Origin: Verrucomicrobiaceae bacterium
Lineage (GTDB): Bacteria > Verrucomicrobiota > Verrucomicrobiia > Verrucomicrobiales > Verrucomicrobiaceae
Direction: 5' to 3'
Assembly: GCA_016795375.1 (NCBI GenBank)
Contig: JAEUHJ010000045.1
Span: 1 to 64,000 of the forward strand
DNA length: 64,000 bases
Shown: positions 17,462 to 54,235 of the stretch, piece after piece
Position numbering within the stretch: position 1 is the stretch's first letter
Layout: every line of letters starts with the position of its first letter
The notes under the pieces: generated by a model
Database searches by the model: none
Told to the model about the DNA's origin: nothing
The model's input: only the letters and a program-made list of their open reading frames with translations
Position numbers and translations under genes: made by a program

Positions 17462-17608
17462 AATGACGAATGACGAAACCAGAAGGACGAATGAAATCCC
17501 GAGCCCGAATGATTCAAAGCTCCCGACGGCAGGCTGAAGTACCCCGGCTTGCTGCCAGGGAAAATTTTCCGGGCATTCGTCATTCGTCATTCGGATCTCG
17601 TCATTTCG
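17462..17608. repeat. Inverted heptamer-repeat element, site A
   Basis: Left arm 17462-17496 reads in 7-bp steps AATGACG, AATGACG, then degenerate units AAACCAG, AAGGACG, AATGAAA. Right arm 17574-17608 reads CATTCGT, CATTCGT, CATTCGG, ATCTCGT, CATTTCG, the reverse complement of the same unit. The arms enclose 77 bp. The element overlaps the 5' end of the BatD/E gene and the right arm encodes IRHSSFGSRHF just before its signal sequence. The same word family recurs at 22.9-23.0 kb. Confidence 0.85.
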
Positions 17609-20121
17609 CCGCCCTTTTGTTTTGCTCTTTATTACATGCCGCCGCCCTGGCGGCGACGGTACGCGCCTACATCCAGCCGGAACGCGCCCACACCGGCCAG
17701 GTCGTCAACTACGTCATCACCGTGCAGAATGGCACCGTGCAGAGCCTGCCACAGTTGCGCCTGCCGGTGCAGGTCGGCATGAACTCCGGCGTCTCCACCT
17801 CGCAGAACATCGCATTGCGCGGCAACCAGCGCGTGTTCTCCACCCAGCTCGCCTGGGGTGTGGCGGGAACGGAGCCGGGTGAGTTTGTCATCGCGCCGCA
17901 GGAGGTGCTGGTGAACGGGGAGATCCTCAAAACGAACGAGGTTCGTCTCGTCGTCACCGAGCCGCCCACGCCCGCCACGCCGCCGGACGCTGCGGAGGAT
18001 GCCAGCACGCCGCTCTTCCAGATCGAAGTCGGCAAAACGGAAGTCTATCAAGGCGAGGTGGTGCCCATCAGCGCCACGCTCTATGTGCCGCGCAGCATCA
18101 CGTTGCGTCGTGTGGGGCTCATCGATGTGAGCAAGAGCGACTTCGCCATCGCCCGCTTCCCGCAGCAGGCCGACCAGGCGCCGACCTCGATCAACGGCAT
18201 CGATTACATCACCGTCACCTACCGCAGCACGCTTTCCGCGCTGCATGCGGGTGATTTGAAGGTCGGACCCGCCACCTGCGAGCTGTTGTACGAGGTGTAC
18301 AATGAGGACGATCAGCGCCAGATGCGCCGCGGACTGCCCTTCGGCCTGATGATGAGGGACTCGGAGACGCGCAAGCAGGTCGTCAAAAGCCAGGAGGTGA
18401 AGATGAAAGTCCTCCCCCTGCCAGCCGAGGGCAAGCCAGCCCACTTCTCAGGAGCCGTCGGAGATTTCACCCTGAGCGCCACCGCCACGCCGAATGAACT
18501 CGCCGTGGGCGATCCGCTGGCCGTGGACATCACCATCGACGGCGTGGGAAACTTCGACGCGCTCAATCCGCCCTCCCTCATGCCGCCGGACGGCTGGAAG
18601 GCCTACCCTCCGCGCCGCTACAACGTCGATGGCCCCGTCGATCCCAATCTCACGCCCACCGCGCAGCGCCGCATCGGCTACTCGATGGTGTTTGTGCCTG
18701 AAAAGGAGCACAAGGAGCTGCCGCCGTTTGAGCTGAGCTTCTTCAGTCCCACGGAGAAAAAATACATTGTCGCGAGCACACCGGCCATCCCGTTGCGCAT
18801 CAAGCCAGGGGCCATGGCTGCGGCTGTCGGCGGCGTTGGCAGCACGGACACTGGCGTCGCCCCAAAACCGCCGGTCGTGCAGCAACCGAAGCCGGACATC
18901 AGCGACATTCTCATGACCTTGCCAGCGAAGGCGGACTGGCTCGCCTCCGCCACGACCGCCGGCGCACCGCTCACCACCAGCGCACGATTCTGGGCTGTAC
19001 AGTCCGTCCCGGCGCTGCTGGTCATCCTGGCGATGTTTCTCGCATGGTTCCGTCGCCATCGTGAGGAGAGCTCCCGTGGTTTGCGCGGTGAATTGCAGCA
19101 ACTGTGGCACGGGCTGCATCAGCAGGATCTCGACGACCGCGAATTCCTCCAACGCGCCGCCCATTTCATCCACCGCAGTCATCCTGGCGCGGTGGAGGAC
19201 ATGGAACTGAAGAACATCCTGCATCGTTACGAGACCCGGAGCTTCATGGCGGCGGCGGCGCAAGGTCAGGAGCTGGATTCCGGCGAGCGGGCGCGCATCC
19301 TGGGCTCGCTCTCTCCTTTGCTGAAACACGCGGCCCTGTTCGCTGCCGCGTTCGTTTTTCTCGGGGGGGGGGCCTTCGCCGCCGATGAATCACCGGATGA
19401 AATCTACCGCCAGGCCCGCGAGGCGCTGGAGAAGGGCAAGTTCACCCAGGCGCAATACCTCGGTGAATCGCTCACCAAAAAGAACCCGCCCGCGTTGAGT
19501 GCCGCGGTCTTCGCGCTCATCGGTCATGCACGTTACCGGCAGGAGGATTTCGGCCGCGCGGCCCTGTGGTACCAGCGCGCGCAATTGCTGGAGCCTGCGA
19601 ATCCCGAGGTGCGGCAGAACCTGCGCCATCTCGACGAGAAGCTCCGCTTTTTCCGCTTCCAGGGAGATTCGCCGCTGGCAGAATGGAGCCTGATCGTTGG
19701 CAGAAACACCTGGATCATCGCCGCGTCCGCCGGGGTGTGGCTCGTCTTGTTCGCGGTCATGCGCTGCATCCTCGCCTCCTCGCGCAAATCCAGCGGCGGA
19801 ACCTGCGCCCTCGTCCTCAGCATCGTCGGTGCGGTGATTTTCCTTCCGTCCGCCGCCTTTGCGGCCATCCGCCCCGATCCCGCCCGGCGAGTGAAGGACA
19901 TGGTGGTTGTCACTGCGAAGGAGGTCAGCGCCTACACCGCTGCCACGCTCACCTCCGGCAGCGTCATCGATCTGCCGCCGGGCAGCCAGATGCGTCTGCT
20001 CGAAAAACGCGGTGCGTGGAGCTACATCGAAATCCCCGGCGCGGATGAACCCGTGCGCGGCTGGGTCGAGTCCGCCGTGTACACCCCGTTGTGGCCGTGG
20101 GAGGCGGGATTGCTGCCCTGA
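17470..20121 (+). CDS. Fused BatD/BatE-like protein with C-terminal SH3-like region
   Basis: 883 residues if the ATG at 17470 is used; 17491 and 17509 are alternatives. The true start is obscured by the heptamer repeat that makes up the N-terminal 45 residues. A signal-like stretch (FAALLFCSLLHAAALAA) ends near residue 62. BatD beta-rich domains follow (about 63-500), a membrane helix (FWAVQSVPALLVILAMFLAW, about 515), then a second signal-like stretch at 617-637 containing a G10 run. After that comes a BatE-like half: TPR repeats (about 640-725), two membrane helices and a small SH3-like domain at the end. BatD and BatE are usually separate genes. The position of the G10 run between them makes the fusion suspicious. 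Confidence 0.82.
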   Translation: MTKPEGRMKSRARMIQSSRRQAEVPRLAARENFPGIRHSSFGSRHFAALLFCSLLHAAALAATVRAYIQPERAHTGQVVNYVITVQNGTVQSLPQLRLPVQVGMNSGVSTSQNIALRGNQRVFSTQLAWGVAGTEPGEFVIAPQEVLVNGEILKTNEVRLVVTEPPTPATPPDAAEDASTPLFQIEVGKTEVYQGEVVPISATLYVPRSITLRRVGLIDVSKSDFAIARFPQQADQAPTSINGIDYITVTYRSTLSALHAGDLKVGPATCELLYEVYNEDDQRQMRRGLPFGLMMRDSETRKQVVKSQEVKMKVLPLPAEGKPAHFSGAVGDFTLSATATPNELAVGDPLAVDITIDGVGNFDALNPPSLMPPDGWKAYPPRRYNVDGPVDPNLTPTAQRRIGYSMVFVPEKEHKELPPFELSFFSPTEKKYIVASTPAIPLRIKPGAMAAAVGGVGSTDTGVAPKPPVVQQPKPDISDILMTLPAKADWLASATTAGAPLTTSARFWAVQSVPALLVILAMFLAWFRRHREESSRGLRGELQQLWHGLHQQDLDDREFLQRAAHFIHRSHPGAVEDMELKNILHRYETRSFMAAAAQGQELDSGERARILGSLSPLLKHAALFAAAFVFLGGGAFAADESPDEIYRQAREALEKGKFTQAQYLGESLTKKNPPALSAAVFALIGHARYRQEDFGRAALWYQRAQLLEPANPEVRQNLRHLDEKLRFFRFQGDSPLAEWSLIVGRNTWIIAASAGVWLVLFAVMRCILASSRKSSGGTCALVLSIVGAVIFLPSAAFAAIRPDPARRVKDMVVVTAKEVSAYTAATLTSGSVIDLPPGSQMRLLEKRGAWSYIEIPGADEPVRGWVESAVYTPLWPWEAGLLP
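19363..19372. repeat. G10 homopolymer inside the BatD/E gene
   Basis: Ten consecutive G encode three glycines in FVFLGGGAFAAD, at about codons 631-634, in a stretch that looks like a signal peptide for a separate BatE protein. A change of one base would split the fusion into two reading frames. Confidence 0.85.
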
Positions 20122-20140
20122 CTTTCATCCGGAGACGCCG

Positions 20141-21016
20141 TCACGCGGCGAGTCTGCATGCCTTGATCGTGTTCGCAATGAGCATCGCGATGGTCATCGG
20201 GCCGACACCGCCGGGAACAGGCGTGATGGCGCGGCATTTCGGCGCGACTTCGTCGAAGGCGACATCACCGACGAGCTTGTAGCCTTTTTCGCTGGCAGGA
20301 TCGTCCACGCGGTTGATGCCGACATCGATGACGACGGCGCCTTCCTTGACGTGCTCCGCCTTGATGAAATGCGGACGACCGATGGCAGCGATGATGATGT
20401 CGGCGGTTTTGGTGATCGCGGCGAGATCGCGCGTGCGTGAATGCGTCACGGTGACAGTGGCATCGCCACCCTTGCCTTTCGCCATGAGCAGCAGCGCCAT
20501 CGGCTTGCCGACGATCATGCTGCGGCCGACGACAACGGCGTGCGCGCCTTTCGTCTCGATGCCCGCGTCAATGAGCAGGCGCTGACAGCCGAGGGGCGTG
20601 CAGGGGACGAAGCCGGTGAGATCTTCCAGCGCGAGCTTGGCGACGTTCGCAGGATGGAAGCCATCGACATCCTTCGCGGGATCAATCGCACGCACGATCG
20701 CGGCCTCGTCGATGTGTTTCGGCGGCGGACTTTGCACCAGAATGCCGTGAATCGCAGGGTCGTTGTTCAACGCATGCACATGCGCAAGCAGCTCGTCCTG
20801 CGTGGTGGTGGCCGGAAGCTCCAGTTTGACTGAGTGCAGGCCCAGATCGCGGCATTTTTTGTCCTTGGAGCGCACATAGGCTCGCGAAGCGGGATCATCG
20901 CCAACGAGAACGACAGCGAGCCCGGGTTTGCGCCCCTGGGCGGCGAGTCCGGCGATGTCGCGGCGGCATTCGGCGAGGACTTTTTCAGCGACGGCGGCTC
21001 CAGAGATGAGGGTCAT
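20141..21016 (-). CDS. folD: Methylenetetrahydrofolate dehydrogenase / methenyl-THF cyclohydrolase
   Basis: 291 residues from the ATG at 21016, the usual FolD size; upstream in-frame sequence is not conserved. It oxidises methylene-THF to methenyl-THF with NADP and hydrolyses it to formyl-THF. Active-site features are Y-V-R-S-K-D-K-K near residue 50 (catalytic lysine), [10 protein letters not shown] near 95, [11 protein letters not shown], and [16 protein letters not shown] for dinucleotide binding, ending in [14 protein letters not shown]. It converges with the BatD/E gene 19 bp away. With gcvT/gcvH and the GlyA domain in this window it supplies one-carbon units. Confidence 0.97.
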
Positions 21017-21047
21017 GCGCTTTCGTTGGCGCAGGGCGTGCCGCTTT

Positions 21048-21254
21048 TCAAGCCGCCAGCATCTTCCGCTTGCCACCCTGGGCCAGCATGACGGCAAGTT
21101 CCGGCATGTAGCGGGCAATCTCATGCGAGAGCACTGAGAGGCGGGTCTCGGACTTCCAGTTGCCCTTCAGACTACGATCGGTGTCGGTCATCTCGACCTC
21201 CACGAGTGTCGAGAACACGGCGGAGTCGGCTTGAAGATCGAGTTGCAGAGTCAT
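21048..21254 (-). CDS. Small conserved-looking protein, unknown
   Basis: 68 residues. The ATG at 21254 overlaps the stop of the preceding 83-residue gene as ATGA, so the two are translationally coupled. The sequence starts with a short beta-like stretch ([20 protein letters not shown]) and ends with a helical part rich in Lys/Arg. There is no signal peptide or cysteine motif. I do not recognise the family. The coupling and the position 31 bp before folD support it being real. Confidence 0.6.
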
Positions 21255-21502
21255 GATGATAGTGAAGGTTGATCCGGCGTGATCAGGACGAGCTCGCCGT
21301 CCTTGAGCGTCCATTTGCGTCTGTCCAAAGCCCCCGAGTTCAACATGGCATCAATCCCATTGCTCAAAAGCATCCGCGCCGCCTCGGCGGGACTGCTGCC
21401 GAACGTGCCCTTCAGGGTCATGTCTTCGAGATACTGCTTGATCTGCGGGGTGACCGCGATCGTCAGCGAAAGTGAGTCGAAGGTGTTTGAAGGGCGGGCC
21501 AT
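21251..21502 (-). CDS. Small ribbon-helix-helix-like protein
   Basis: 83 residues. The N-terminal half (SLTIAVTPQIKQYLEDMTLK, then GTFGSSPAEAARMLLSNGID) has the strand-helix-helix pattern of small CopG/RHH-type DNA-binding proteins. The C-terminus is charged. It is the first gene of a two-gene unit with the 68-residue protein and could be an autoregulator or antitoxin-like. No toxin fold is evident in its partner. A plausible promoter lies upstream in the AT-rich gap. Confidence 0.65.
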   Translation of the reverse strand: MARPSNTFDSLSLTIAVTPQIKQYLEDMTLKGTFGSSPAEAARMLLSNGIDAMLNSGALDRRKWTLKDGELVLITPDQPSLSS

Positions 21503-21528
21503 CCAATAGAAATCAGGTAATAATTAGG

Positions 21529-21557
21529 TTTTAACTCCAACTTGGCCGGATGGTCAA
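21529..21557 (-). promoter_or_regulatory. Candidate promoter for the small two-gene unit
   Basis: On the minus strand, TTGACC (21552-21557) and TTAAAA (21529-21534) are separated by 17 bp, 27 bp upstream of the ATG at 21502. The whole gap 21503-21680 is AT-rich compared with its surroundings and must also hold the promoter for the divergent DUF1080 gene. Confidence 0.4.
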
Positions 21558-21680
21558 GGTTGGTTTCGATTTATTTGGGGTTTTTACCCAATAAAAATCG
21601 CGGATTTATTTAACATTTATTAAACAATTGAGCTTTTCGATGGAAATCGAACCCGGCGGGCGTTCAAATCGCCCTGTTTT

Positions 21681-22382
21681 ATGAAAACTCGTCTCATCGC
21701 CTCCCTCTCCACCGCTGCCCTGCTGTCCGTCACCTTGTTCAGTCTCCATGCCGAAGAAAAAGGCGGATGGCAGAAGTGGTTCGCTGACGGCACGCTTTCA
21801 GGCGGGCAGGTCATCAGCGGCCAGGCCTCTTACAAGGTGGAAGACGGGGTGCTCGTCGGCACCACCGTCGATGGCAGTCCGAACACCTTCCTTGCCATCG
21901 GACCGTTCAAGGACTTTGAACTCGAGTTCGAGGTGAAGGTGGACGATGAACTCAACTCCGGCGTCCAGGTGCGCAGCCATATCGCCAAGGAGGGTGATCC
22001 AGCACCCGAAGGCAGCAAGAACGGCAAACCGCTGCCTGCCGGCCGTCTCTACGGTCCGCAGTGCGAAATCGCCATCAACGGCACCGCCGGTGATTTTTAC
22101 GACGAGGCCCGTCGCGGCACCTGGTGGAGCATCCTCACGAAGACCGAGTCCGTGCGCAGCGACGCGGCGAAGGCTGCCTTCAAGAAGGGCGAATGGAACC
22201 GCTACCGCATCGTGGTGAAGGGTGATCACTACCAGAGCTTTGTGAATGGCGTCCCTACTGCTGATTTCACCCAACCCGGCGACCCAGAAGGCCACATCGG
22301 CTTCCAGGTGCATGGCATCAAGAAAGGCGCCGGCCCCTACAGCGTGCGCTGGCGTAATGTGAAGTTCCGCGCGGCGAAGTAA
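21681..22382 (+). CDS. Secreted DUF1080 (3-keto-disaccharide hydrolase-type) protein
   Basis: 233 residues. A signal peptide covers about residues 1-24 (ending LFSLHAEE). The mature part is a jelly-roll of the DUF1080 family: GWQKWFADGTLSGGQVISG, then YKVEDGVLVGTT, DFELEFEVKVDDELNSGVQVRS and a C-terminal GHIGFQVHG. DUF1080 domains are abundant in Verrucomicrobia and Planctomycetes and some hydrolyse 3-keto-glycosides. The substrate here is unknown. Its 3' end overlaps the convergent minus-strand gene by 46 bp. Confidence 0.9.
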   Translation: MKTRLIASLSTAALLSVTLFSLHAEEKGGWQKWFADGTLSGGQVISGQASYKVEDGVLVGTTVDGSPNTFLAIGPFKDFELEFEVKVDDELNSGVQVRSHIAKEGDPAPEGSKNGKPLPAGRLYGPQCEIAINGTAGDFYDEARRGTWWSILTKTESVRSDAAKAAFKKGEWNRYRIVVKGDHYQSFVNGVPTADFTQPGDPEGHIGFQVHGIKKGAGPYSVRWRNVKFRAAK

Positions 22383-23005
22383 GCGAACGCGAGCAGCAAA
22401 ACGCACGAGGCCGTCACTGCCTGCGGGCGACGCCACCACGGTGTCAGGCGGACGGGGATGGCCTTTGACCGGTCACCCGCGAGCAGCAGCATCCATTTCG
22501 GCGGCGTGGCGGGATCGGCCCCGTCGTGTGTCCACAGCAGCACGTCGTGAAGTTTGCCCTTTGGCATCTCAAAGACGATTTCCGGTGTCTCACTGTGCCA
22601 GCGCCACGCCGAAGTGGTCAAGGCGTGTGGCTGCGATTCCGTCTCGGACGGCAGATAAGAAGCAGGAGCAAACTCCGCCCAGTTGTCATGCTGTGAGATG
22701 CTGGCACTGGCGATTTGCGCCAGCGGTACGAGGGCGTCATCACGACGCAGTCGGATGGGATCGAGCAATGCGTCCTTCGCCGCCGACTCATCCACGATCA
22801 GCGGATTGCCACCGTGGTCGGCGGTGATTTCGAGCAGCACCTCCGCGTCTGGCAGCAAGGTGAGCTTCGCGCTCAAAAACTCCGCGCCATGACCGAAAAC
22901 ACACAGAGGAGCGTTGAGAATGACGAATGATGAAATTCGAATGACGAATGAGCGGATGGCGTGCTGCATCGGCGATTCGTCATTCGGGAATTCGGAAATC
23001 GTCAT
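22337..23005 (-). CDS. Membrane-anchored protein of unknown function with repeat-derived N-terminus
   Basis: 222 residues from the ATG at 23005, which overlaps the stop of the preceding NHL-propeller gene as ATGA. A later ATG at 22969 is also possible. The first 35 or so residues, including the hydrophobic SFVIRISSFVILNAPL, are encoded by the heptamer-repeat element and seem to serve as a signal or anchor. The rest is a beta-rich exported domain followed by a C-terminal membrane helix (TASCVLLLAFAYFAARNF). I do not recognise the family. The 3' end overlaps the DUF1080 gene. Confidence 0.65.
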   Translation of the reverse strand: MTISEFPNDESPMQHAIRSFVIRISSFVILNAPLCVFGHGAEFLSAKLTLLPDAEVLLEITADHGGNPLIVDESAAKDALLDPIRLRRDDALVPLAQIASASISQHDNWAEFAPASYLPSETESQPHALTTSAWRWHSETPEIVFEMPKGKLHDVLLWTHDGADPATPPKWMLLLAGDRSKAIPVRLTPWWRRPQAVTASCVLLLAFAYFAARNFTLRQRTL

Positions 23006-23008
23006 TTC
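22921..23008. repeat. Inverted heptamer-repeat element, site B
   Basis: Left arm 22921-22955 in 7-bp steps: TGACGAA, TGATGAA, ATTCGAA, TGACGAA, TGAGCGG. Right arm 22974-23008: GATTCGT, CATTCGG, GAATTCG, GAAATCG, TCATTTC. The arms are inverted and share words with site A. The right arm contains both the TGA stop of the NHL gene and the ATG of the next gene. Confidence 0.85.
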
Positions 23009-23949
23009 TTGAGGTTCCACCTCAAGACACGGCCCCACTGGTTCCATTCGGTTTCGAGGATGTTGCCATCGTTGTCGAAGGTGATTCCGTGCGGGCTGGT
23101 CACCACGCCTTGCTTCCAGTCTTTCGGCTCGATCTTCGGCGTGTTGGTTGTTTGCGGGCTGGTGCCGAGGTCGGCGACGCGCTTATTGTCCTTGTCCCAG
23201 ACGCTGACATTGCCGGCGATCTCGGCCACGCACATCAGATCACCGTGGAAGCTGGCGGAGCTTGGATTGCGCATCCCGGTGGCGATTTCGCCGATGAAGG
23301 CGCCGTCGAGCCGGGTGTGCAGCATGCGCTTGTGGCCGCGGTCGCAGATCATCACGCGCGCGGGTTCAAAGCGGCGGTCGATGAAAATCTTGTGCGCGTT
23401 GGCGAGCTTCAGCGGCTCGCCCGGGCCGCCGAAAACGCTCTTGAACTTGCCTTCACGGCTGAAGACGAAGATGAAGCTCTGGCCGTAGCCATCGACGACA
23501 TAAATGTCGCCGTTCGGGGCCACGTCGCAGTTCGTGAGCTTGAGACCCTTGCCGATCTTGTCGGCGGGGAACTCGCTCGTCGGGATGGTCATGAGCACCT
23601 TGCCTTCGAGGTCGCACTTGATGACCTTTTGCTCGCCGAGCACGGCGGCGAAGATGAACTCGTCCCCATTGTCCTTGCGGATGACAAAGCCGTGCAGCGA
23701 CTGCGGCAGCGGCAGCGCCTTGATGAACTTGCCGTCTTTGCCATAGACCTGGATGCCGGCGTTCGCCTCCTGGACGCTCACATAGATGTTTCCGGCGGCA
23801 TCGACGGCTATCTCGCCGTGGCCGTTGCCGATGGTTTCCTTGCCAGGCGGCGGCTGGATGAAGTTCGGGACGAATTCATAGGCCACCTCAGCGGCGGCGC
23901 TGCCGGCGAGGGCCATGACGGACAGGAGGGAGAGTGTGCGGTTTTTCAT
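23002..23949 (-). CDS. Secreted NHL/SMP-30-type beta-propeller protein
   Basis: 315 residues. Signal peptide at about 1-20 (LLSVMALAGSAAAE). Repeated propeller blades are visible: GEIAVDAAGNIYVSVQEAN, then CDVAPNGDIYVVDGYGQS, and HGITFDNDGNILETEWNQWG, the last two typical of six-bladed NHL-repeat lyase/hydrolase-like proteins. It is probably periplasmic. The ligand is unknown. The stop codon lies within the heptamer repeat and overlaps the next gene's start. Confidence 0.87.
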   Translation of the reverse strand: MKNRTLSLLSVMALAGSAAAEVAYEFVPNFIQPPPGKETIGNGHGEIAVDAAGNIYVSVQEANAGIQVYGKDGKFIKALPLPQSLHGFVIRKDNGDEFIFAAVLGEQKVIKCDLEGKVLMTIPTSEFPADKIGKGLKLTNCDVAPNGDIYVVDGYGQSFIFVFSREGKFKSVFGGPGEPLKLANAHKIFIDRRFEPARVMICDRGHKRMLHTRLDGAFIGEIATGMRNPSSASFHGDLMCVAEIAGNVSVWDKDNKRVADLGTSPQTTNTPKIEPKDWKQGVVTSPHGITFDNDGNILETEWNQWGRVLRWNLKK

Positions 23950-24069
23950 CAGGGCGATTCAAACGGGTGCCGGAGGCGGCGTCAATCTTCCCGTGAGCAT
24001 TTTACTGGATGCTCCTGTCATACGGCGGGAAACTTCAGGCCACGCATCGCGTTTCAACGACACCCTTTC

Positions 24070-26286: not shown

Positions 26287-26311
26287 GCATGCAGAAGCTT
26301 TATGCAAATCC

Positions 26312-27208: not shown

Positions 27209-27230
27209 GTGATATTCGTTGAGACAACAC

Positions 27231-28166: not shown

Positions 28167-28186
28167 GAGAAATATCGTGTGGGGGA

Positions 28187-37545: not shown

Positions 37546-38586
37546 TCAGCCGGCCAGCGGGAGATTGGGATCCACATCCGCCTCCAGTGGCGAGGTGTGG
37601 CCGGCATTGAAGCGTTGCACGGCTGCGAAGGCGATCATGCCCGCATTGTCGGTGCAAAGATCGGGCCGTGCGAGCAGCAGTTGCAGTCCTTCTCTGGCGC
37701 AGCGCGCAGTCAGGGCGTCGCGCAGGCCGCGGTTGCAGCTCACGCCACCGCTGACGGTGACGAGCGGCTCGTCGCTGCGTTTCGCCGAGAGCACGAGCTT
37801 TTCCACCAGCACCTCGATGATCGCAGTCTGCACGCTGGCACTGAGGTCAGCGAGCGTTTGCGCGTTCTTCAAATCGAGCTTTGGCAGTTCGTAGAGTACA
37901 GCCGTCTTCAGTCCGCTGAAGCTGAACTCCAGGCTCCTGCCATCGAGGAAGCTGCGTGGAAACGCGAACGCCTGCGGATCGCCCTGTCGCGCGAGTTTGT
38001 CGATCTCCGGGCCGCCGGGGTAGGGGAGGCCGATCATTTTTGCCACTTTGTCGAAGGCCTCCCCAGCCGCGTCATCGCGTGTGCGTCCGAGCAATTCATA
38101 CCGCCCGATGCCATGCACGCGCACGAGCATGGTGTGGCCGCCGCTGACGATGAGGGCGACGCAAGGGCGCACGGGGCCGGTGCCATTCATGAAAGGCGAG
38201 AGCAGATGGCCCTCCATGTGATTCACGGCGAGAAACGGCTTGTTCTCCGCCAGGGCGAGAGCCTTGGCCAGCGACGTGCCAATCAGCAGCGAGCTGACGA
38301 GACCCGGGCCGCTCGTGGCTGCGAATGCGGCCATGTCGCCCAGTGTTTTGCCCGCATCCGCCAGAACCTGCCGCACCAACGGCCGCGCATGCAGGATGTG
38401 GTTTCTCGAGGCCACTTCCGGGACGACGCCGCCATACTGGCGGTGAATGTCGATTTGCGAGGCGATGCGGCTGGCGATCAACTCGCCTTCCAGTGTACAG
38501 ATCGCGGCGGCGGTCTCGTCGCAGGAGGATTCGAGGGCGAGCAGGCACGACTGGCCGCTGGATGCTGGATGCTGGATGCTGGACAT
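37546..38586 (-). CDS. tsaD: tRNA N6-threonylcarbamoyladenosine transferase
   Basis: 346 residues from the ATG at 38586. TsaD transfers the threonylcarbamoyl group to A37 of tRNAs reading ANN codons. ASKHA-fold features: LALESSCDETAAAI at the N-terminus, VNHMEGHLLSPF (iron-binding histidines) near 117, VSGGHTMLV near 142, and VSGGVSCNRGLRDAL near 279. The first 13 residues (MSSIQHPASSGQS) are not part of the family; they are encoded by the heptamer repeat, so the conserved start LALESS comes about 10 residues later than usual. The PQQ-like gene follows. Confidence 0.96.
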   Translation of the reverse strand: MSSIQHPASSGQSCLLALESSCDETAAAICTLEGELIASRIASQIDIHRQYGGVVPEVASRNHILHARPLVRQVLADAGKTLGDMAAFAATSGPGLVSSLLIGTSLAKALALAENKPFLAVNHMEGHLLSPFMNGTGPVRPCVALIVSGGHTMLVRVHGIGRYELLGRTRDDAAGEAFDKVAKMIGLPYPGGPEIDKLARQGDPQAFAFPRSFLDGRSLEFSFSGLKTAVLYELPKLDLKNAQTLADLSASVQTAIIEVLVEKLVLSAKRSDEPLVTVSGGVSCNRGLRDALTARCAREGLQLLLARPDLCTDNAGMIAFAAVQRFNAGHTSPLEADVDPNLPLAG

Positions 38587-38641
38587 CGAATGGATAACGG
38601 GGACCACCATGATGAGAGCAGATCAAGTATCCAGCGGCCAA
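38551..38641. repeat. Inverted heptamer-repeat element, site C
   Basis: Left arm 38551-38585: CTGGCCG, then CTGGATG three times, then CTGGACA in strict 7-bp steps. A short inverted arm at 38629-38641 (ATCCAGCGGCCAA) matches the left arm CTGGCCGCTGGAT at 12 of 13 positions. The left arm encodes SSIQHPASS of the TsaD N-terminus. This word family differs from sites A and B but has the same 7-bp period and inverted layout. Confidence 0.82.
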
Positions 38642-39401: not shown

Positions 39402-39410
39402 GAGTGGGGG

Positions 39411-43651: not shown

Positions 43652-43729
43652 GCGCCGATGGTAGCGCGAAACGGCTTTCCGCCAAGAGGGGCGCTTGCGG
43701 TTCCGCCATGCGCGGGCAGTTTTGCCGCC

Positions 43730-44077: not shown

Positions 44078-44123
44078 TTGCGCGTTGCAGACGCCGGATT
44101 GCGGATTATCCAGGGCAGCCCAG

Positions 44124-45263: not shown

Positions 45264-45286
45264 TTTTTCAATCACGATCCAACGAC

Positions 45287-45487: not shown

Positions 45488-45503
45488 GCGTCTCTCCGGT
45501 TTC

Positions 45504-46589: not shown

Positions 46590-46592
46590 GCG

Positions 46593-47537
46593 CTATTCGC
46601 GGGGAGGCTGGCGGGCGCCGAAAAGACTGCCGAAGAGTTTTTTGATCGCGGCGAGGACGCCGATGACGAGCAGGATCGCCGCCTTGCCCAGTTTGGCGAT
46701 GAAACCGCTGAGCTTGGCAAACAGCCCCATCTTCGCGGCGGCAAAGGCCCCCGTGCCGGCGATGAGCGCGGTGAGGCCGTATTTGGCCACCTTGTCCCCT
46801 TCGCGAAATTCGGCGTAGCGCTGGCCCTCGGTGTAGGAGAAGCCTTCGAGGATTTTCTGGTAGCCTGGCAACAGGGGCTCCAGCTCCTCCGGGGAGCAAA
46901 GCAGGGTGACTTCCATCACGCCGTTGCGGCCAAGGACACGGGTGTTGTGATTGATGGTCACTCCTCCGGTGGCTTTTGACCTGAGCTTCAAGGCCCATTC
47001 GAGATTTTTGGTCCGGTCGTTGAAGTGCGGCGGCACGGCCCAGCCGGTGATCTCGAGCTCGTCGAGACCCATTTGCTTCCGGCGTTCATTGTCAGCCACC
47101 TGCCCTTCCTGCATGGACGCCAGCAGCTCGTCGGCTTTCAAATCGTTCTTTTCGTCGTCCTTCACATAGCCCACGTCATCGAATTCAAAGATGATGCTGT
47201 GCTCCTGGAAATTTTCCGTCGCCAGCAGTCCCAGATAGCGGTCGGAGGGAGGGTTGCCGTAAAATTCCAGCATCCTGCCGGCTCCCTTGCCGTCGGTGAA
47301 ACGATAGCCTGGCGGGATGAGGATCTGGGCGAGGGAGCCGATCTTGCCAGATCCCTGGCGGGTCCAGCCGAACTTTTCGATCTCCTCGCTGATTTTCTTG
47401 ATCCGGGCCGCCTTCTGTTCCGGCGTGGGCGGCGCGTCGGCGGCGGGGCCGCTTTCAGCGGGTTGCTGGGAGAGGACGGAAGGGGCGGCCGCAAGGCAGG
47501 CCAGCAGGGCGACGGTGAGCGCGAAAGATGTTTTCAT
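46593..47537 (-). CDS. DUF2167 membrane protein
   Basis: 314 residues from the ATG at 47537. Signal peptide LTVALLACLAAAPSVLS. The body has the DUF2167 pattern: GWTRQGSGKIGSLAQILIPP and YRFTDG near the start, GYVKDDEKNDLKADELLASM in the middle, ITGWAVPPHFNDRTKNLEWAL and YGLTALIAGTGAFAAAKMGL near the end, then a basic C-terminal helix (AILLVIGVLAAIKKLF). DUF2167 proteins are predicted membrane proteins without an assigned role. It is upstream of the zinc-ribbon membrane gene. Confidence 0.88.
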   Translation of the reverse strand: MKTSFALTVALLACLAAAPSVLSQQPAESGPAADAPPTPEQKAARIKKISEEIEKFGWTRQGSGKIGSLAQILIPPGYRFTDGKGAGRMLEFYGNPPSDRYLGLLATENFQEHSIIFEFDDVGYVKDDEKNDLKADELLASMQEGQVADNERRKQMGLDELEITGWAVPPHFNDRTKNLEWALKLRSKATGGVTINHNTRVLGRNGVMEVTLLCSPEELEPLLPGYQKILEGFSYTEGQRYAEFREGDKVAKYGLTALIAGTGAFAAAKMGLFAKLSGFIAKLGKAAILLVIGVLAAIKKLFGSLFGARQPPRE

Positions 47538-47649
47538 CGCGGCGGAGTCTGACAGGTTTTGTGACAAAACGTCAAGAGGGGCTTTCACGGATTAGTGTTT
47601 GGCAGCGGCAAAGCGCGGCGCATGTTGCCCGCACTGCCGCAGATGACGC

Positions 47650-48423
47650 ATGACTGAAACGAACACAGCCTCCGGCCACGCTCCGCGTCGCGGACCTGGT
47701 TGTCTTGCCGTGATGTCTCTGACACTGCTGGCGGTGGCGGCCATCGCCGGAATCGTGGTGTGGAAGATGATGGATTCCGGTTTCGGCCTGAAGTGGCTGA
47801 TGGAGCATTTCCAGCAGCGCAGCATCACGGAGGTCTTCCGCGAGAGCGTGCGGCGCATCGCCTCCACGAACGGGGATGTGCTGGAGCTGGCGACGCTGGA
47901 GTCGGAGGAGACGGTGACGAAGTTCGACTCGAAGACGCTCTTTGACGTGGTTTATCTCGGCACCACGGAGTCGGAGATCCGTGCGATGGTGGTGTTCCGC
48001 TACCATTTGAAACTGTCGGATGACTGGAGCCTGAACGTGAAGGACGGGCGCTGTGTGGTGGTCGCGCCGGGAATCAGGCCGTCCCTGCCGCCGGCGATCC
48101 GCACGGAGACGATGGAGAAAAAATCGGCGGCGGGCTGGCTGCGCTTCAACGCGGCGGAGAACCTCTCCGAGCTGGAGAAGGGGCTGACGGCCCTGCTGGA
48201 AAAACGCGCCGCGACTCCGGGCAAGATCAAAAGCGTGCGTGAGGCGGCGCGGCTCTCCGTGGCGAAATTTGTCCGGGCGTGGGTGCTCAAGGAGCAGCAA
48301 GACCTCGAGCAGGGCGGCATCCGCGAGATCGTGGTGCTTTTTCCCGATGAGCCGGGGGCGGAGGATGGCAGCGCGGCTTTGAAGCAGCCCGCCACTTTGC
48401 AGCTTGAGGTCAAAGCGGACTGA
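47650..48423 (+). CDS. DUF4230-like single-pass membrane protein
   Basis: 257 residues. One membrane helix (LAVMSLTLLAVAAIAGIVVW, about 19-38), then a soluble domain with VLELATLESEETVTKFDSK and a WSLNVKDGRCVVVAPGI segment, reminiscent of DUF4230 proteins. The C-terminal part is helical and charged. The function is unknown. It converges with the pseudopilin gene 6 bp away. The family call is tentative. Confidence 0.7.
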   Translation: MTETNTASGHAPRRGPGCLAVMSLTLLAVAAIAGIVVWKMMDSGFGLKWLMEHFQQRSITEVFRESVRRIASTNGDVLELATLESEETVTKFDSKTLFDVVYLGTTESEIRAMVVFRYHLKLSDDWSLNVKDGRCVVVAPGIRPSLPPAIRTETMEKKSAAGWLRFNAAENLSELEKGLTALLEKRAATPGKIKSVREAARLSVAKFVRAWVLKEQQDLEQGGIREIVVLFPDEPGAEDGSAALKQPATLQLEVKAD

Positions 48424-48429
48424 AGCGGC

Positions 48430-48852
48430 TCAAAGCTGGCCGCCGGCCGGTTCGTAGAGCAGCAGCCCGGCCTCGAACTTCACAAAGGCGAGCGCGCCCG
48501 GCAGGCGATGCTCGTCGATGCCGCCGAGGCGGAAGGTTTTGCCCTTCCAGATGCCGTCCTGGCCCACCGTGCCGGCAATGAGCTTGTCCACCGTGGCCCG
48601 CTTGTCCCCCTCCACCACGAAATCCGCGCCTGCCATCGTGGCGCTTACGCCGAGTGAGACGATCTCCTGCGCATTGCGCTGATCGACCACGCGCCGCATC
48701 GCCTCGCGGTGCCCGCCGCCGTGGCTGGCAATGACCAGGCCGCACATGATGGCGATGATGGTGACGACCACGAGCAGCTCCAGTAGCGAAAAGCCGCGCG
48801 CGCCCCGTGCGGAGGCGGCGGGCGGGCCGGAACGGTGTGGAAGGCGTGACAT
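48430..48852 (-). CDS. Lone type IV pilin/pseudopilin-like protein
   Basis: 140 residues. After 20 basic residues comes the prepilin cleavage site and helix GFSLLELLVVVTIIAIMCG, with Gly before F and Glu at position +5. The rest is a small globular head (GTVGQDGIWKGKTFRLGG). This is the class III signal used in type II secretion pseudopilins, type IV pilins and the many DUF1559-like proteins of PVC bacteria. No assembly genes are nearby. Confidence 0.85.
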   Translation of the reverse strand: MSRLPHRSGPPAASARGARGFSLLELLVVVTIIAIMCGLVIASHGGGHREAMRRVVDQRNAQEIVSLGVSATMAGADFVVEGDKRATVDKLIAGTVGQDGIWKGKTFRLGGIDEHRLPGALAFVKFEAGLLLYEPAGGQL

Positions 48853-48936
48853 CAGCGGAAAATGTCCTCCATCGTGACGCCGGTGCAATCTCTCGTTTTG
48901 AATCCGGCGTATTCCACGGCTAGGACACACCCGAAA

Positions 48937-49521
48937 ATGATCCCTGATGATCTTCTGCCAGCCTTGTCGCATGCCGCGGTCGAGTCGGCGGGCTACCGTG
49001 TCGCGCGGTGGGCCGCAGCCCGCGAGGTGTTGCACGCACGCGTCACGAAAGGACGTGTCGCGGGGGATTTGGGGCGGTTTTTGACGCGCTGGATGCCCGC
49101 CGGGCCGCTGGACGTCGTCGCCGGAACCTTCGGACTCGACTTTGACCTCACGCCAGAGGGGATGAGGCTGCGGGGCGGGGAGCCGGCCTTTGTGGCCGTT
49201 TCGCAGGAGCACGCGTTGCTGCATTTGCCGGCGCTGCGCTCGTTCTGGCGCAATGAACTGCGGCAGGCGCATTTCGAGGAGTTGACGCGCATCGTGCCGC
49301 AGGCATGGTTCATGGATGACGGGGAGGTGCCGCCCGGAGCGGTCATCCACGGTCTCGGCATCACGTCGTTCGAGCGGTTGGACAGGGTGGATTCAGACGC
49401 GTGGGCGGCGCGGGAGGGTGTTTTGAGCCGGAAAATGCCCGCCGGAACGCGGATCCGCGCCACATACGGTCGTGATGACAGGGGCCGTGTTGTTTTGCGT
49501 TCCCTTGAAGCGGCACCTTGA
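48937..49521 (+). CDS. Hypothetical cytoplasmic protein
   Basis: 194 residues from the ATG at 48937 (ATG 48862 in frame would add 25 unlikely residues overlapping the divergent promoter). No signal peptide or membrane segment. Helical N-terminus ([20 protein letters not shown]), later [20 protein letters not shown] and a C-terminal strand-rich part. I do not recognise a family. clpX starts 44 bp downstream, so it may be co-transcribed. Confidence 0.55.
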
Positions 49522-49565
49522 CGCGCGGCACGCCTCCGTGCGACATTCAACCACCTCCAAACAAC

Positions 49566-50858
49566 ATGGCTCGCGGCTCCAACGTCACCCTCTGCTCCTT
49601 CTGCGGCAAAAGCCACGCGGAAGTGAAGAAGCTCATCGCCGGGCCGGGGGTGTACATCTGCGACAACTGCATCCACGTCTGCAAAAACATCCTCGACAAG
49701 GAGTCCGCGCAGGAGACGGACAGCGGCGGAGGCTCGCTGCTCGTGCCGCGCCCGGCGGACATCGCGGCGCTGCTCGACCAGCATGTCATCGGCCAGCCGC
49801 AGGCGAAGAAGGTGCTCAGCGTCGCGGTGCATAATCATTACAAGCGCATCCTCCATGCGCAGCAGCGGGCCGCGCGCGGCGGCGCGCAGAAAAAAATCGC
49901 CGCCACGCTGCCGGATCCGCACGATGTCGAGATCGAGAAGAGCAACGTGCTGCTCATCGGCCCCACCGGCTGCGGCAAGACGCTGCTGGCCAAGACCCTC
50001 GCGAAAATCCTCAACGTGCCCTTCAGCATCGCTGATGCCACCACGCTCACCGAGGCCGGCTATGTGGGCGAGGACGTGGAGAACATCATCCTGCGCCTGC
50101 TCCAGGCCGCGGATTACGATGTCGCGCGTGCCGAGGTCGGCATCGTTTACATCGACGAGATCGACAAGATCGGCCGCAAGACCGAGAACGTCAGCATCAC
50201 GCGTGATGTCTCCGGCGAAGGCGTGCAGCAGGCGCTGCTGAAAATCATCGAGGGCACGGTCTGCAATGTGCCGCCGCAGGGCGGGCGCAAGCATCCGCAG
50301 CAGGAATACATCCAGGTGAACACGGAGAACATCCTCTTCATCTGCGGCGGAGCCTTCGTCGGCCTCGAAAAAATCATCGAACGCCGCCTCGGGCGGAAAA
50401 CGATGGGCTTTGCCGTCTCCCGTGAGACGGCAGCCGCGGAATCCGCCAGGGCGAAGCCCGGCGTGGAGCCGGAGGATTTGCTGGCCTTTGGTTTGATTCC
50501 TGAATTCATCGGCCGTCTGCCGGTCGTCTGCGCGCTGGAGGCGCTGACCGAGCAGGAGCTCATGCGTGTGCTCACGGAGCCGAAAAACGCGCTCACCAAG
50601 CAGTTCTCCAAACTCCTGCACATGGACGGGGTCGAGCTTTCCATCACCCGCGACGCCATGCTCGCCATGGCAAAGGAGGCCGTCGAGCGTGGCACCGGCG
50701 CGCGCGGCCTGCGCAGCATTTTTGAGCGCATCATGCTCGACGTCATGTATGACGTGCCCAGCCGCATGGACGTGCGCGGCGTCACCATCAACGAAGGTGT
50801 CGTCAAAGGAGAGCGCGCCCCGCTCATGCGCAAGCGCATTGACCGCAAGGCGGCGTAG
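49566..50858 (+). CDS. clpX: ATP-dependent Clp protease ATP-binding subunit ClpX
   Basis: 430 residues, normal for ClpX. N-terminal zinc finger ([11 protein letters not shown], then CDNCIHVC), Walker [11 protein letters not shown], pore loop GYVGEDVE, Walker [11 protein letters not shown], and the C-terminal [17 protein letters not shown]. It unfolds substrates for ClpP. No clpP is adjacent. It ends just before a long hairpin terminator shared with the convergent carA. Confidence 0.98.
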
Positions 50859-50894
50859 GTCATGGGCTGGAAAAGCCTTCCTTGCCTGAGAGAT

Positions 50895-50955
50895 GGCCGA
50901 AAAAGAGACAAGAGAAGAAAAGAGATCTCTTTTCCTTCTTTTCTCCTTTTCGGCC
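50895..50955. terminator. Long palindromic bidirectional terminator between clpX and carA
   Basis: A 61-bp near-palindrome centred on AGAGATCTCT with outer GGCCGAAAA/TTTTCGGCC. One arm is purine-rich, the other pyrimidine-rich, so the stem ends in T-rich sequence on both strands. It separates two convergent genes. Confidence 0.75.
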
Positions 50956-50977
50956 AATCCTGCTCTGACCAACCGGC

Positions 50978-52147
50978 TCAGCGCCCCTTATCGATCATCG
51001 CGGCGAATTCGGCGAAGAAGTACTTCGCGTCGTGCGGGCCGGGGGCGGCCTCGGGATGGTATTGCACGCTGAGCACAGGGGCTTCGCGGTGGCGCATGCC
51101 CTCGACAGTGCCGTCATTGAGGTTGATGTGCGTGACCTCGACGTTGCCGGGCAGCGATGACGGGTCGATGGCGAAGCCGTGGTTCTGGCTGGTGATGGCG
51201 ACCTGGCCGTTGCGCAGGTCTTTCACCGGCTGGTTGCCGCCACGGTGGCCGAATTTCAGTTTGAAGGTCTTCCCGCCATACGCGTGGCCGAGAATCTGAT
51301 GGCCGAGGCAGATGGCGAAGATCGGCTTCACACCGATGAGCTGCTTCACCTCCTTGTGGATGTAATCGAGCGCGGCGGGGTCGCCGGGGCCGTTGGAGAG
51401 GAAGATGCCGTCGGGATTTTTGGCGAGCACATCCTTCGCGCTGGTCGTCGCGGGAACGACATCGACACGGAAGCCGGCCTGACGCAGGCGGCGCAGGATG
51501 TTGCGTTTCACGCCGAAGTCGTAGGCCACGATGTGATGCTTCGCGGGCTTCAGTGCGTGAAACGCACCAGTGGGGCCACCTTCGCGATGTTGTGAGGGGC
51601 TGGGGATGTCCCAGTCGCGGCTTTCCTGGTCCTCGGGGTCCCAGAGATAAGGCTTCGGCGTGGTGACTTCCTTCACGAAGTCGCTGCCTTCCATCGGCGC
51701 GCTGCTGGCGGCGAGCTTCACCGACTCTTCATGATTGAGCACCTCGGAGGTGATGATGGCGCGCATCGCGCCGCGGGTGCGCAGATGCTTGGTCAGCGCA
51801 CGCGTGTCGATGCCCTGGATGCCGGGGATGTTCCATTCCTTGAGCCACGAGCTGAGATCCTGCGTGCTGCGCCAGTTGCTCGGCACGTTGCACAGTTCCT
51901 CGATGACGAAGCCGCGCACCTGCGGGCGGTCGCTCTCGAAGTCGAGCGGGTTCACGCCGTAGTTGCCGATCTGCGTGTAAGTCATCGTCACGATCTGGCC
52001 GCGGTAGGACGGATCGGTGAGCACCTCCTGGTAGCCGGTCATGGAGGTGTTAAAGCAGATTTCGCCGGTGTGCGTGGCCTCGGCGCCGAACGCCGTGCCT
52101 TCAAACACCCGGCCGTCTTCGAGGGCGAGGAGGGCTTTCTTCATCAA
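50978..52147 (-). CDS. carA: Carbamoyl-phosphate synthase small subunit
   Basis: 389 residues, normal for CarA (glutamine amidotransferase subunit). It supplies ammonia to CarB for carbamoyl phosphate in pyrimidine and arginine synthesis. N-terminal domain: [20 protein letters not shown]. Class I GATase catalytic cysteine in [12 protein letters not shown] near 273, with [10 protein letters not shown] near 358-367 (His and Glu of the triad). An in-frame insertion of about 17 residues around 190-206 ([14 protein letters not shown] region) lies between domains. carB is not in the window. An ATG one codon later could equally be the start. Confidence 0.97.
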
Positions 52148-52235
52148 GTTGCGCCGCTGGTCATAGCCAGAAGGGCGGGGGGCGCAAGGAATGACAAAGG
52201 CTGAATTTTAAGTTCCTCTCTCCGTTCTACCGCGC

Positions 52236-52733
52236 TCACGGAACCTCCTCTTTCACCGCCTCCACCACGCTCGTTTTGCCATCTTTCGTCTCCAGCCGCA
52301 GTTTCAGCCGGCCAAACTCCTTCTTGTAACTCCAGCCGACCTCCGCCTGCCACGTCGTGGCGCTGGTTTGCCGGAGCTTGCGCAGTTGCAGGACAAAAGC
52401 GGCGAGCCGGGTCTCGGAATCGGCGATGATGTGATCCGGCGGAACATCCTTCAAGTTCATCGCATTGATGAATTTCAGCTTCAGATCAGCAAAACGGGCG
52501 GTGAAGCCGTCGGAGGCGGGAGTCATGCCGTCGCGGTTGATCTCGCCGAGCACGATGGAGTGACTTTTCGCCACGCCGGGATTCAGGCCGGGCAGTTGGG
52601 CGATGAGATGCCGCAGCGCGGCCTCCCCGGCGTCGCATTCATAAAGGTTCAGCGGCAGCGCGGTCGTGTCGGACGAGTCGCAGGCGGCGAGGCCGAGGCA
52701 GAGGGTGGCAAAAAGGGCGTGTCGGCGGGTCAT
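52236..52733 (-). CDS. Predicted lipoprotein, unknown function
   Basis: 165 residues from the ATG at 52733; an ATG four codons earlier (52745) is also possible. Signal MTRRHALFATLCLGLAAC with lipobox cysteine at 18. The mature protein is alpha/beta with no motif I recognise (HSIVLGEINRDGM, then WQAEVGWSYKKEFGRLKLRL at the end). It diverges from hflX. The 88 bp between its stop and the carA start are empty. Confidence 0.72.
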   Translation of the reverse strand: MTRRHALFATLCLGLAACDSSDTTALPLNLYECDAGEAALRHLIAQLPGLNPGVAKSHSIVLGEINRDGMTPASDGFTARFADLKLKFINAMNLKDVPPDHIIADSETRLAAFVLQLRKLRQTSATTWQAEVGWSYKKEFGRLKLRLETKDGKTSVVEAVKEEVP

Positions 52734-52799
52734 GACCACGTTCATGGCATGGAATACGCGGCTTGGCAACGTGCCGCCGCTCGCCATGCTCCGCCCCAC

Positions 52800-54092
<1,293 letters not shown>

Positions 54093-54112
54093 TCTGTGAG
54101 CGTGGCGCGGGG

Positions 54113-54235
54113 CAAAGTTCCAAGTTTCAGGTTTAAAGTTTTCAAGTTGCCGTTTCGTCGCTCAATACTTCCTCTTTTGACCGTTCTTCTTCGGCTTCCC
54201 AACTTTGAACCTTCAACCTTGAACTTGTAACTGCT
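54113..54235. repeat. Inverted heptamer-repeat element, site D
   Basis: Left arm 54113-54148: CAAAGTT, CCAAGTT, TCAGGTT, TAAAGTT, then TCAAGTT after one extra T. Right arm 54201-54235: AACTTTG, AACCTTC, AACCTTG, AACTTGT, AACTGCT, the inverse words. The right arm ends 3 bp before the ATG of the SDR gene, so it is its 5' leader. A third word family with the same 7-bp period. Confidence 0.8.

What the first reader, a model, noticed from the sequence alone, without database searches (positions are those of the whole stretch)
17462..54235. Frame-neutral heptamer repeats with inverted arms: a possible repeat class with three word families
Four intergenic elements (17462-17608, 22921-23008, 38551-38641, 54113-54235) are built from 7-bp units kept in phase for up to five units, with an inverted arm 66-77 bp or so away. 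The words differ (CATTCGT / CTGGATG / CAAGTTT-like) but the period and layout are the same. Since 7 mod 3 = 1, a pure run translates to the same 7-residue cycle in all three frames (for CATTCGT: I-R-H-S-S-F-V). Such a repeat can be inserted near a gene start without creating stops on one strand, while giving stops and ATGs on the other. Heptanucleotide tandem repeats (STRR) are known in heterocystous cyanobacteria. Whether this class has been described in Verrucomicrobia is not known to me.
Basis: partly seen in the sequence, partly recalled or inferred. Interest (0 to 1): 0.88.

Follow-up and report, generated by a model that had tools for sequence, protein, structure and literature searches.

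The report
Gene-less copies of IVP hairpin elements
Short, hairpin-shaped DNA repeats scattered between the genes of a bacterium look like gene-less copies of a little-known kind of spreading DNA element whose full versions carry the gene of a small protein known from inserts in ribosomal RNA genes.

Summary
The four features are real: inverted repeats with arms of short, mostly 7-bp words. Two word families are strongly enriched in the genome, the third weakly. The same kind of arms encloses PF05635 genes (23S rRNA intervening-sequence protein, IVP/S23p): 3 of 3 in this genome, and in all 137 of 171 loci read here (own, relatives, many named phyla) against 7 of 468 shifted windows; by groups of loci with related flanks, 65 of 81. 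Arm words track IVP clade. One locus in congeners shows full element, gene-less palindrome, solo arm and empty site; nuoB-nuoC and batD show filled and empty sites. Words of window elements 3 and 4 flank IVP genes in relatives; no IVP with the AATGACG words of elements 1 and 2 was found. Best reading: gene-less members of a class of mobile IVP elements. Spread is supported; that IVP drives it is inferred. Paired 7/8-mer arrays, and heptamers in one 23S IVS, are in print; ten searches listed no paper linking such arms to IVP genes outside rRNA.

The parts
17462..17608 (.). Element 1: AATGACG-family inverted repeat; tight arms 17462-17477 and 17576-17591, further units on either side of the loop; between a VWA-domain gene and batD
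   Evidence: (score 16; 2 of 2888 random positions reach it); ortholog series
22918..23008 (.). Element 2: AATGACG-family inverted repeat; arms 22919-22949 and 22975-23006
38551..38641 (.). Element 3: GCTGGAT-family inverted repeat; arms 38552-38570 and 38622-38640; runs into the 5' end of tsaD (minus strand)
   Evidence: same words flank IVP genes in L308, L314, L321
54113..54227 (.). Element 4: AAGTTTC/AAGGTTC-family inverted repeat, more diverged; arms 54115-54140 and 54201-54226; between a GTPase gene (GTP-bdg_N/M domains, HflX-like) and an SDR gene
   Evidence: same words flank IVP genes in L101-L104, L107, L108
17470..20121 (+). batD-like ORF whose first possible start codon lies inside element 1
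   Evidence: PF13584
37546..38610 (-). tsaD ORF whose N-terminal residues (...MSSIQHPASSGQS...) are encoded by element 3
   Evidence: PF00814

Best explanation
The four features are gene-less copies, intact or decaying, of a class of small insertion elements. A full element is: left arm of short-period words (usually 7 bp, also 6, 8, 9 or 10), a gene for a ~120-residue four-helix-bundle protein (PF05635, IVP/S23p), and a right arm that is the inverted copy of the left. Gene-less forms arise by internal deletion of the gene and then behave like MITEs: they multiply in bursts, often sit between a stop codon and the next start codon, and decay to single arms. SHOWN here: inverted arms around IVP genes; arm words that follow IVP clade between loci with unrelated flanks; filled and empty sites; a deletion series at one locus. 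INFERRED: that IVP recognises the words of its own arms and is needed for spread. NOT KNOWN: the chemistry, because IVP has (to my knowledge) no nuclease, transposase or reverse transcriptase domain, so other factors would have to join the DNA. Where transcribed, the arms should form a long stem that RNase III could cut, as published for 23S rRNA IVSs, which would explain why insertion inside the nuo operon is tolerated.
For: Own genome: 3 IVP genes (one with an internal stop), all 3 between inverted short-period arms. Own plus relatives: 65 of 72 and 14 of 20; named genomes of many phyla: 58 of 79; shifted-window controls 0 of 207, 1 of 54 and 6 of 207. Many loci are orthologous; joined into 81 groups by homologous flanking ORFs, 65 groups have arms in at least half of their loci, and 43 of 57 ungrouped loci have them. 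Mispaired flanks reach the cut-off in 124 of 1440, 14 of 342 and 90 of 1580. Arm-word similarity follows IVP identity over 7245 locus pairs without homologous flanking ORFs, r = 0.31, reached by 0 of 2000 permutations. Window words 3 and 4 are IVP arms in relatives. glgE-like locus: of 11 same-genus genomes with the same upstream gene, 5 have the full element, 3 a gene-less palindrome, 2 a solo arm, 1 is empty; the gene-less copies align to the G001 element at both ends, the right block (61 of 81, 49 of 57, 61 of 82 identical) including the last 25-28 nt of the IVP gene (19 of 25, 23 of 28, 19 of 26). nuoB-nuoC: 3 of 26 loci filled (spacer 170-177 bp); the 9 other loci with >=87% identical NuoC have 11-18 bp. 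AATGACG words: 1 to 310 matches in the 34 same-genus relatives (27 in the own genome), 9 in 21 genomes of other families; reversed pattern 1 in all 56. The Coxiella 23S IVS has tandem heptamers before S23p (PMC4990558, passages).
Against: No IVP with AATGACG arms was found, and AATGACG copy number does not follow IVP number: G010 has 75 matches and 1 IVP with other words (L147), G025 has 1 match and 6 IVPs. So the largest family spreads without a visible cognate IVP. 34 of 171 IVP genes lack arms at the cut-off. The own right flank beats every other locus's right flank in only 32 of 72, 9 of 19 and 43 of 79 (families are shared). No target-site duplication was established. Arm mismatches show no excess of G-U over A-C pairs (106 against 140), so selection on an RNA stem in the gene sense is not seen. 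Element 4's family is weakly enriched in this genome. Inverted repeats as such also flank Y1_Tnp genes here (2 of 10 at 250 bp, 7 of 10 at 450 bp), though not short-period ones.
Confidence: 0.62

Rival explanations
1. REP/REPIN-like palindromes moved by a Y1 (RAYT) transposase.
For: They are palindromic, short, extragenic and multi-copy; the genome has 10 Y1_Tnp matches, 7 of which have some inverted repeat within 450 bp.
Against: None of the 10 Y1_Tnp loci has a period-7 or -8 array, and only 1 (L088) has an AATGACGAA-type word in its locus; their flanking palindromes are other sequences, e.g. CCGCACAG...CTGTGCGGACCACTT. Short-period arms sit around IVP genes instead.
Confidence: 0.1
2. Regulatory or architectural sites: paired tandem arrays bound by a nucleoid or regulatory protein, as proposed for Geobacter metallireducens, or transcription-ending hairpins. 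IVP genes would be regulated by such sites rather than belong to them.
For: Paired 7/8-mer arrays on opposite strands were described as putative IHF/HU sites (PMC2700814, passages). Long stems fold well.
Against: Presence and absence at one locus between close species, copy numbers from 1 to 310 within a genus, in-frame arrays inside coding genes, and words that differ by element but follow the IVP clade fit insertion better.
Confidence: 0.12
3. Local slippage and template switching: any 7-bp word expands in place and its inverted copy is made by strand switching; IVP genes are only a favoured neighbour.
For: Many words share one period; pure runs of 9 or more units exist in congeners (G018 and G005); arms are near copies of each other.
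Against: It does not explain why the arms enclose IVP genes in 137 of 171 loci, why similar words occur with similar IVPs at unrelated loci of distant phyla, or ~160-bp insertions with a loop.
Confidence: 0.1
4. Mobile elements moved by an unidentified enzyme in trans, e.g. a reverse transcriptase, with IVP as passenger or helper (as Avd helps the DGR reverse transcriptase).
For: PF05635 resembles Avd (PMC10053308, passages); IVP itself has no known catalytic domain; AATGACG copies abound where no cognate IVP was found.
Against: RVT_1 matches occur in only 30 of 56 genomes and are absent in G005, G008, G029 and G004, which have 66, 64, 62 and 35 AATGACG matches. Drafts are incomplete and past activity is not excluded; other enzymes were not searched.
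Confidence: 0.3

Closest known systems
23S rRNA intervening sequences with S23p/IVP ORF (Coxiella, Leptospira; PMC4990558, passages)
   Same: Terminal inverted repeats that form a stem, S23p ORF in the loop, about 430 nt in Coxiella, tandem heptamers before the ORF, called selfish.
   Different: Those IVSs lie inside rRNA genes; these lie between (or in frame within) protein genes, in many copies, with gene-less derivatives and clade-specific words.
Paired tandem octa/heptanucleotide 'global regulator binding sites' of Geobacter metallireducens (PMC2700814, passages)
   Same: Tandem 7- or 8-mers in pairs on opposite strands at variable distance, multi-copy.
   Different: Read there as possible IHF/HU sites; the main text holds none of the words S23, IVP, 23S, intervening sequence or four helix.
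TAACTGA heptamer repeats of Beggiatoaceae, Cyanobacteria and Bacteroidetes (PMC4679880, passages)
   Same: 7-bp units, mostly intergenic, near starts, mixed with other heptamers in some genomes, shorter spacers without repeats in some relatives.
   Different: Direct repeats (169 sets, one indirect repeat, in the main genome), one main word, read as translational regulators; none of the same five words in the text.
REP/REPIN palindromes with RAYT
   Same: Short multi-copy extragenic palindromes.
   Different: No Y1 transposase partner seen; arms are short-period arrays; partner gene is IVP.
DGR accessory protein Avd
   Same: Resembles PF05635 according to PMC10053308 (passages).
   Different: DGR parts beside the elements were not searched for; reverse transcriptase genes are missing from several genomes with many copies.

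Membership tests
23S rRNA IVS (S23p type) | Lies within an rRNA gene | tested here: not met
   Rfam scan of the window: 0 matches; neighbouring genes are protein genes
23S rRNA IVS (S23p type) | Complementary ends that form a stem | tested here: met
23S rRNA IVS (S23p type) | Encodes S23p/IVP (PF05635) | tested here: not met
   Not in the four window elements; the genome's three PF05635 genes lie elsewhere, each between such arms
23S rRNA IVS (S23p type) | Excised from the transcript by RNase III | not testable with these tools
   Needs RNA data
IVP element (as defined in this report) | Inverted short-period arms with the words of an IVP clade | tested here: inconclusive
   Met for elements 3 and 4; no IVP with AATGACG arms found for elements 1 and 2
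MITE | Internal-deletion derivative of a larger element | tested here: inconclusive
   Supported at the glgE-like locus for the 10-bp family, not shown for the window elements themselves
MITE | Target-site duplication | tested here: inconclusive
   Empty and filled nuoB-nuoC sites differ too much at the edges to call one by eye
REP/REPIN-RAYT | Y1_Tnp gene flanked by the same repeats | tested here: not met
   10 of 10 Y1_Tnp loci of the own genome lack period-7 and -8 arrays
Cyanobacterial STRR / TAACTGA heptamer repeats | Head-to-tail direct repeats without inverted partner | tested here: not met
   Inverted arms in all four elements; the STRR definition is recalled

The most novel reading that the evidence does not exclude
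IVP elements are a widespread, so far unnamed class of bacterial mobile DNA whose mobility protein is a small non-catalytic four-helix-bundle protein that recognises its own short-period words, each protein clade with its own word and period. The classic 23S rRNA intervening sequences are the rRNA-borne members, and many scattered 'heptamer repeats' in bacteria are their gene-less derivatives.
Probability: 0.45. Interest if true: 0.92.

Novelty: new variant of a known kind. Interest (0 to 1): 0.8.

Why it matters
It would join three unexplained observations: selfish intervening sequences in 23S rRNA genes, IVP/S23p proteins of unknown function, and heptamer or octamer repeats seen piecemeal in Cyanobacteria, Beggiatoaceae and Geobacter. 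It makes the origin of IVSs ('remnants of a transposition event' is one published hypothesis, PMC4990558) directly testable. If IVP reads short-period words by clade, it is a new type of repeat-recognising protein. The elements also change genes: at batD and tsaD the start region now overlaps repeat, and five DUF1549/DUF1553 genes carry in-frame arrays.

Tried and rejected
RNA-stem selection: arm mismatches would favour G-U pairs if the gene-sense RNA stem were kept; they do not (106 against 140). Reverse transcriptase requirement: not supported. RAYT as mover: not supported. AATGACG-armed IVP: not found among the 171 IVP loci scored, nor, by an HMM built from 123 IVPs, in the loci or the own-genome stretches (only the known IVP of L046). 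A first arm test with looser scoring and 300-bp flanks gave medians 27 paired and 13 mispaired, but only 6 of 32 beat the 99th percentile of mispaired flanks, because loci share word families; the stricter scoring replaced it. The palindrome search in the own-genome sample was too noisy (54 real against 22 in a shuffle; most printed cases are not short-period). A look for ten short 23S rRNA motifs (recalled) in the IVP loci gave one single-motif match (L180), not followed. Literature: 10 searches; none listed a paper that I could see links IVP/S23p genes outside rRNA with short-period inverted arms; subscription journals and preprints are not held. Read as passages only: PMC4679880, PMC10053308, PMC4990558, PMC11270868, PMC2700814; all others in listings only.
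Full report
WHAT WAS CHECKED. The four elements are in the sequence at the given places. Each is an inverted repeat with short-period arms. Scored as left half against reverse complement of right half, they reach 16, 13, 14 and 13.5; random window positions of the same geometry reach those scores in 2 of 2888, 2 of 2877, 1 of 2902 and 1 of 2884 draws. All four fold better than shuffles on the + strand (z -4.8, -4.7, -4.3, -3.3; for element 4 one of 200 shuffles does as well); element 4 does not on the minus strand (z -1.2). The CATTCGT words have 53 genome matches against 0 for the reversed pattern, the GCTGGAT words 12 against 0; both counts include overlapping registers of one array. The words of element 4 are weakly enriched: 6 against 1 at two mismatches, little beyond.

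THE CLASS IS WIDER THAN THE FINDING. A sample of the genome (window plus 40 stretches, 748,973 bases; 20 stretches were the first 20 contigs, 20 came from long contigs most of which I knew to hold matches) showed further period-7 word families: GCGATGA/GGGATCA, AATCAGA, CTTGAAA, GCATTCC. Long arrays (score 18 or more) are commonest at period 7 (4; periods 12, 16, 21: 2, 1, 1); short ones (12 or more) are as common at periods 6, 12 and 21 (8, 9, 8 against 7). [quoted passage not shown] That led to the main test.

IVP GENES SIT BETWEEN SUCH ARMS. The genome has three PF05635 genes, one with an internal stop. All three lie between inverted arms, each with its own words: GCGATGA/GGGATCA, GGGAGAT, and a 10-bp family GTTTGCGGTG. 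For a numerical test, 250 bp left of each gene was aligned to the reverse complement of 250 bp right of it: score 13 or more in 65 of 72 loci, against 0 of 207 windows shifted outwards in the same loci. These 72 are the 3 own genes, 29 loci returned (one best per genome) and 40 that I picked from its list, mostly strong ones. Twenty further loci, from six same-genus genomes mostly rich in AATGACG copies, gave 14 of 20, control 1 of 54. Together 137 of 171, control 7 of 468. Many loci are orthologous: joined by homologous flanking ORFs they form 81 groups, of which 65 have arms in at least half of their loci; of 57 ungrouped loci 43 have arms. The best period among arms scoring 14 or more was 7 in 36, 10 in 15, 8 in 7, 11 in 2 and 5 in 1 of 61, and 7 in 32, 8 in 15, 9 in 5 and 10 in 3 of 55. 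Left flanks paired with right flanks of other loci score 13 or more in 124 of 1440, 14 of 342 and 90 of 1580, which reflects shared word families; the own right flank beats all others in 32 of 72, 9 of 19 and 43 of 79.

WORDS FOLLOW THE PROTEIN. Among the 123 elements with score 13 or more, excluding pairs with homologous flanking ORFs, arm-word similarity rises with IVP identity (mean cosine 0.03-0.06 below 50% identity, 0.10 at 50-60%, 0.23 at 60-80%; 7245 pairs; r = 0.31; 0 of 2000 permutations reach it, maximum 0.09). Loci labelled Bacteroidetes, Ignavibacteriales, Dadabacteria, Bryobacterales, Planctomycetota and Victivallales share CAGAATTCAG-type words with 70-82% identical proteins. 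There are exceptions: some similar proteins have unlike arms (L201/L217, 90% identical, cosine 0). The arms are strand-polar: the left arm in the gene sense has more G than C in 113 of 123, against 71 of 121 outer flanks. IVPs of the 10-bp clade look conserved (dN/dS median 0.07), but only 26 of 66 pairs gave a usable dS, many of these near saturation and not independent. The profile of 16 IVPs matches the solved proteins 2gsc and 2rld; that XCC0516 (2gsc) is built of four-helix bundles is in PMC10053308's reference list and PMC4990558.

GENE-LESS COPIES DERIVE FROM FULL ONES. At the locus upstream of a glgE-like gene (name recalled), 11 of 22 same-genus genomes read show the same upstream gene: five carry the full element (spacer 525-639 bp; G000, G015, G001, G013, G023), three a palindrome of the same 10-bp words without the gene (151-162 bp; G002, G012, and G021 with a reduced left arm), two a solo left arm (G004, G017), one neither (G008). 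Against the G001 element the gene-less copies align at the left arm (28 of 36, 28 of 39, 12 of 18 identical) and in a right block (61 of 81, 49 of 57, 61 of 82) that begins in the last 25-28 nt of the IVP gene (19 of 25, 23 of 28, 19 of 26 identical). This points to an internal deletion; the similarity inside the gene end is short, so independent origin is not fully excluded.

INSERTION AND SPREAD. nuoB-nuoC: three of 26 loci (G000, G015, G001) have an AATGACG palindrome in a 170-177 bp spacer between stop and start; nine others with NuoC at least 87% identical have 11-18 bp; one distant genome (L300) has a 180-bp spacer without such words. Window element 1 (batD), by eye: of 21 genomes read, 3 have both arms (G000, G011, G015), 2 have both arms reduced (G023, G004), 5 keep mainly left-arm remnants (G012, G001, G021, G002, G013), 10 show no AATGACG-type arm, and in 1 (G016) the upstream gene was not found. 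AATGACGAATGACGAA matches (one mismatch) range from 1 to 310 among 34 same-genus relatives, with 9 in 21 genomes of other families and 1 reversed-pattern match in all 56. This looks like expansion in bursts.

LINK TO THE WINDOW. Words of element 3 flank IVP genes in L308, L314 and L321 (same genus); words of element 4 flank IVP genes in L101-L103, L107 and L108 (same genus) and L104 (another family of the order). For elements 1 and 2 no IVP with AATGACG arms was found, and copy number does not follow IVP number (G010: 75 matches, 1 IVP; G025: 1 match, 6 IVPs). Their membership rests on layout and on the general class, and is the weakest point.

MECHANISM. Shown: insertion, unequal copy number, shared inheritance of arm words and gene; supported: internal deletion, selection on IVP. 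Inferred: IVP recognises the words and promotes copying. Open: the enzyme. Reverse transcriptase genes were not found in several genomes with many copies, Y1 transposases have other palindromes, and the wobble test gives no sign of selection on an RNA stem. RNase III cutting is carried over from 23S IVSs (PMC4990558), not tested.

WHAT IS KNOWN. The Coxiella 23S IVS is called a selfish element with terminal inverted repeats, an S23p ORF and tandem GACAGAT heptamers upstream of it (PMC4990558, passages). IVP ORFs also occur in 16S and 23S insertions of CPR bacteria (PMC11270868, one passage). Paired tandem octa- and heptanucleotides were annotated as putative IHF/HU sites in Geobacter metallireducens (PMC2700814, passages), whose text has none of the words S23, IVP, 23S, intervening sequence or four helix. 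TAACTGA heptamers are known in Beggiatoaceae and others (PMC4679880, passages). PF05635 resembles Avd (PMC10053308, passages). None of the ten search listings showed the link reported here; most subscription papers are not held.

VERDICT. New variant of a known kind, because 23S IVSs are the nearest kin; possibly a mobile-element class of its own.

Noticed in passing
L010 1501-1540, L068 3919-3957, L077 6900-6918, L078 6726-6755, L071 9819-9843: Five heptamer arrays of different words lie in frame inside proteins with DUF1549 (four also with DUF1553); in four of them at the same place, between the LTGLPPTPEEV stretch and the SPHYGERWARHWLD stretch.
   Followed up: partly
17470-17650 and 38551-38610: Start regions of batD and tsaD overlap repeat arms; in several congeners the first batD start codon lies in a decayed left arm (MIQS...).
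   Followed up: partly
L356 (G010) and L367 (G022), just before the batD mature start: Signal-peptide region holds a different AGTTTTC-like array (TTTTTAGTTTTCAGTCTTC...), perhaps another word family at the same place as window element 1.
   Followed up: no
L046 3341-3485, L056 2645-2764, L075 16749-16828, L093, L091: Another palindrome family, AAAGTGGTCCGCACAG..CTGTGCGG, not short-period; also within 450 bp of two Y1_Tnp genes (L093, L091), so perhaps the RAYT-linked REP of this genome.
   Followed up: no
L018 1501-1700; L316, L319: Period-6 words (CTCGTC/CTCCTC type) in a gene-less palindrome of the own genome and around divergent PF05635 genes in congeners.
   Followed up: partly
L068 17588-17661: Palindrome with period-9-like arms ACCACGGAATACACAGAACACACGGAAA, possibly the same class.
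   Followed up: no
window 17449-17461; L275, L285; L122: Small GC-rich hairpins (e.g. GCCGCTTCGCGGC) lie just outside the left arm in several elements; part of the element or target site is unclear.
   Followed up: no
G018:C6:160077-160141, G005:C55:33907-33985: Long pure arrays of the AATGACG unit (9 or more units) in congeners.
   Followed up: no
L328 (G001): The glgE-locus element seems to have three arms: a small gene-less palindrome lies directly before the IVP gene, as if one element had inserted next to another.
   Followed up: no
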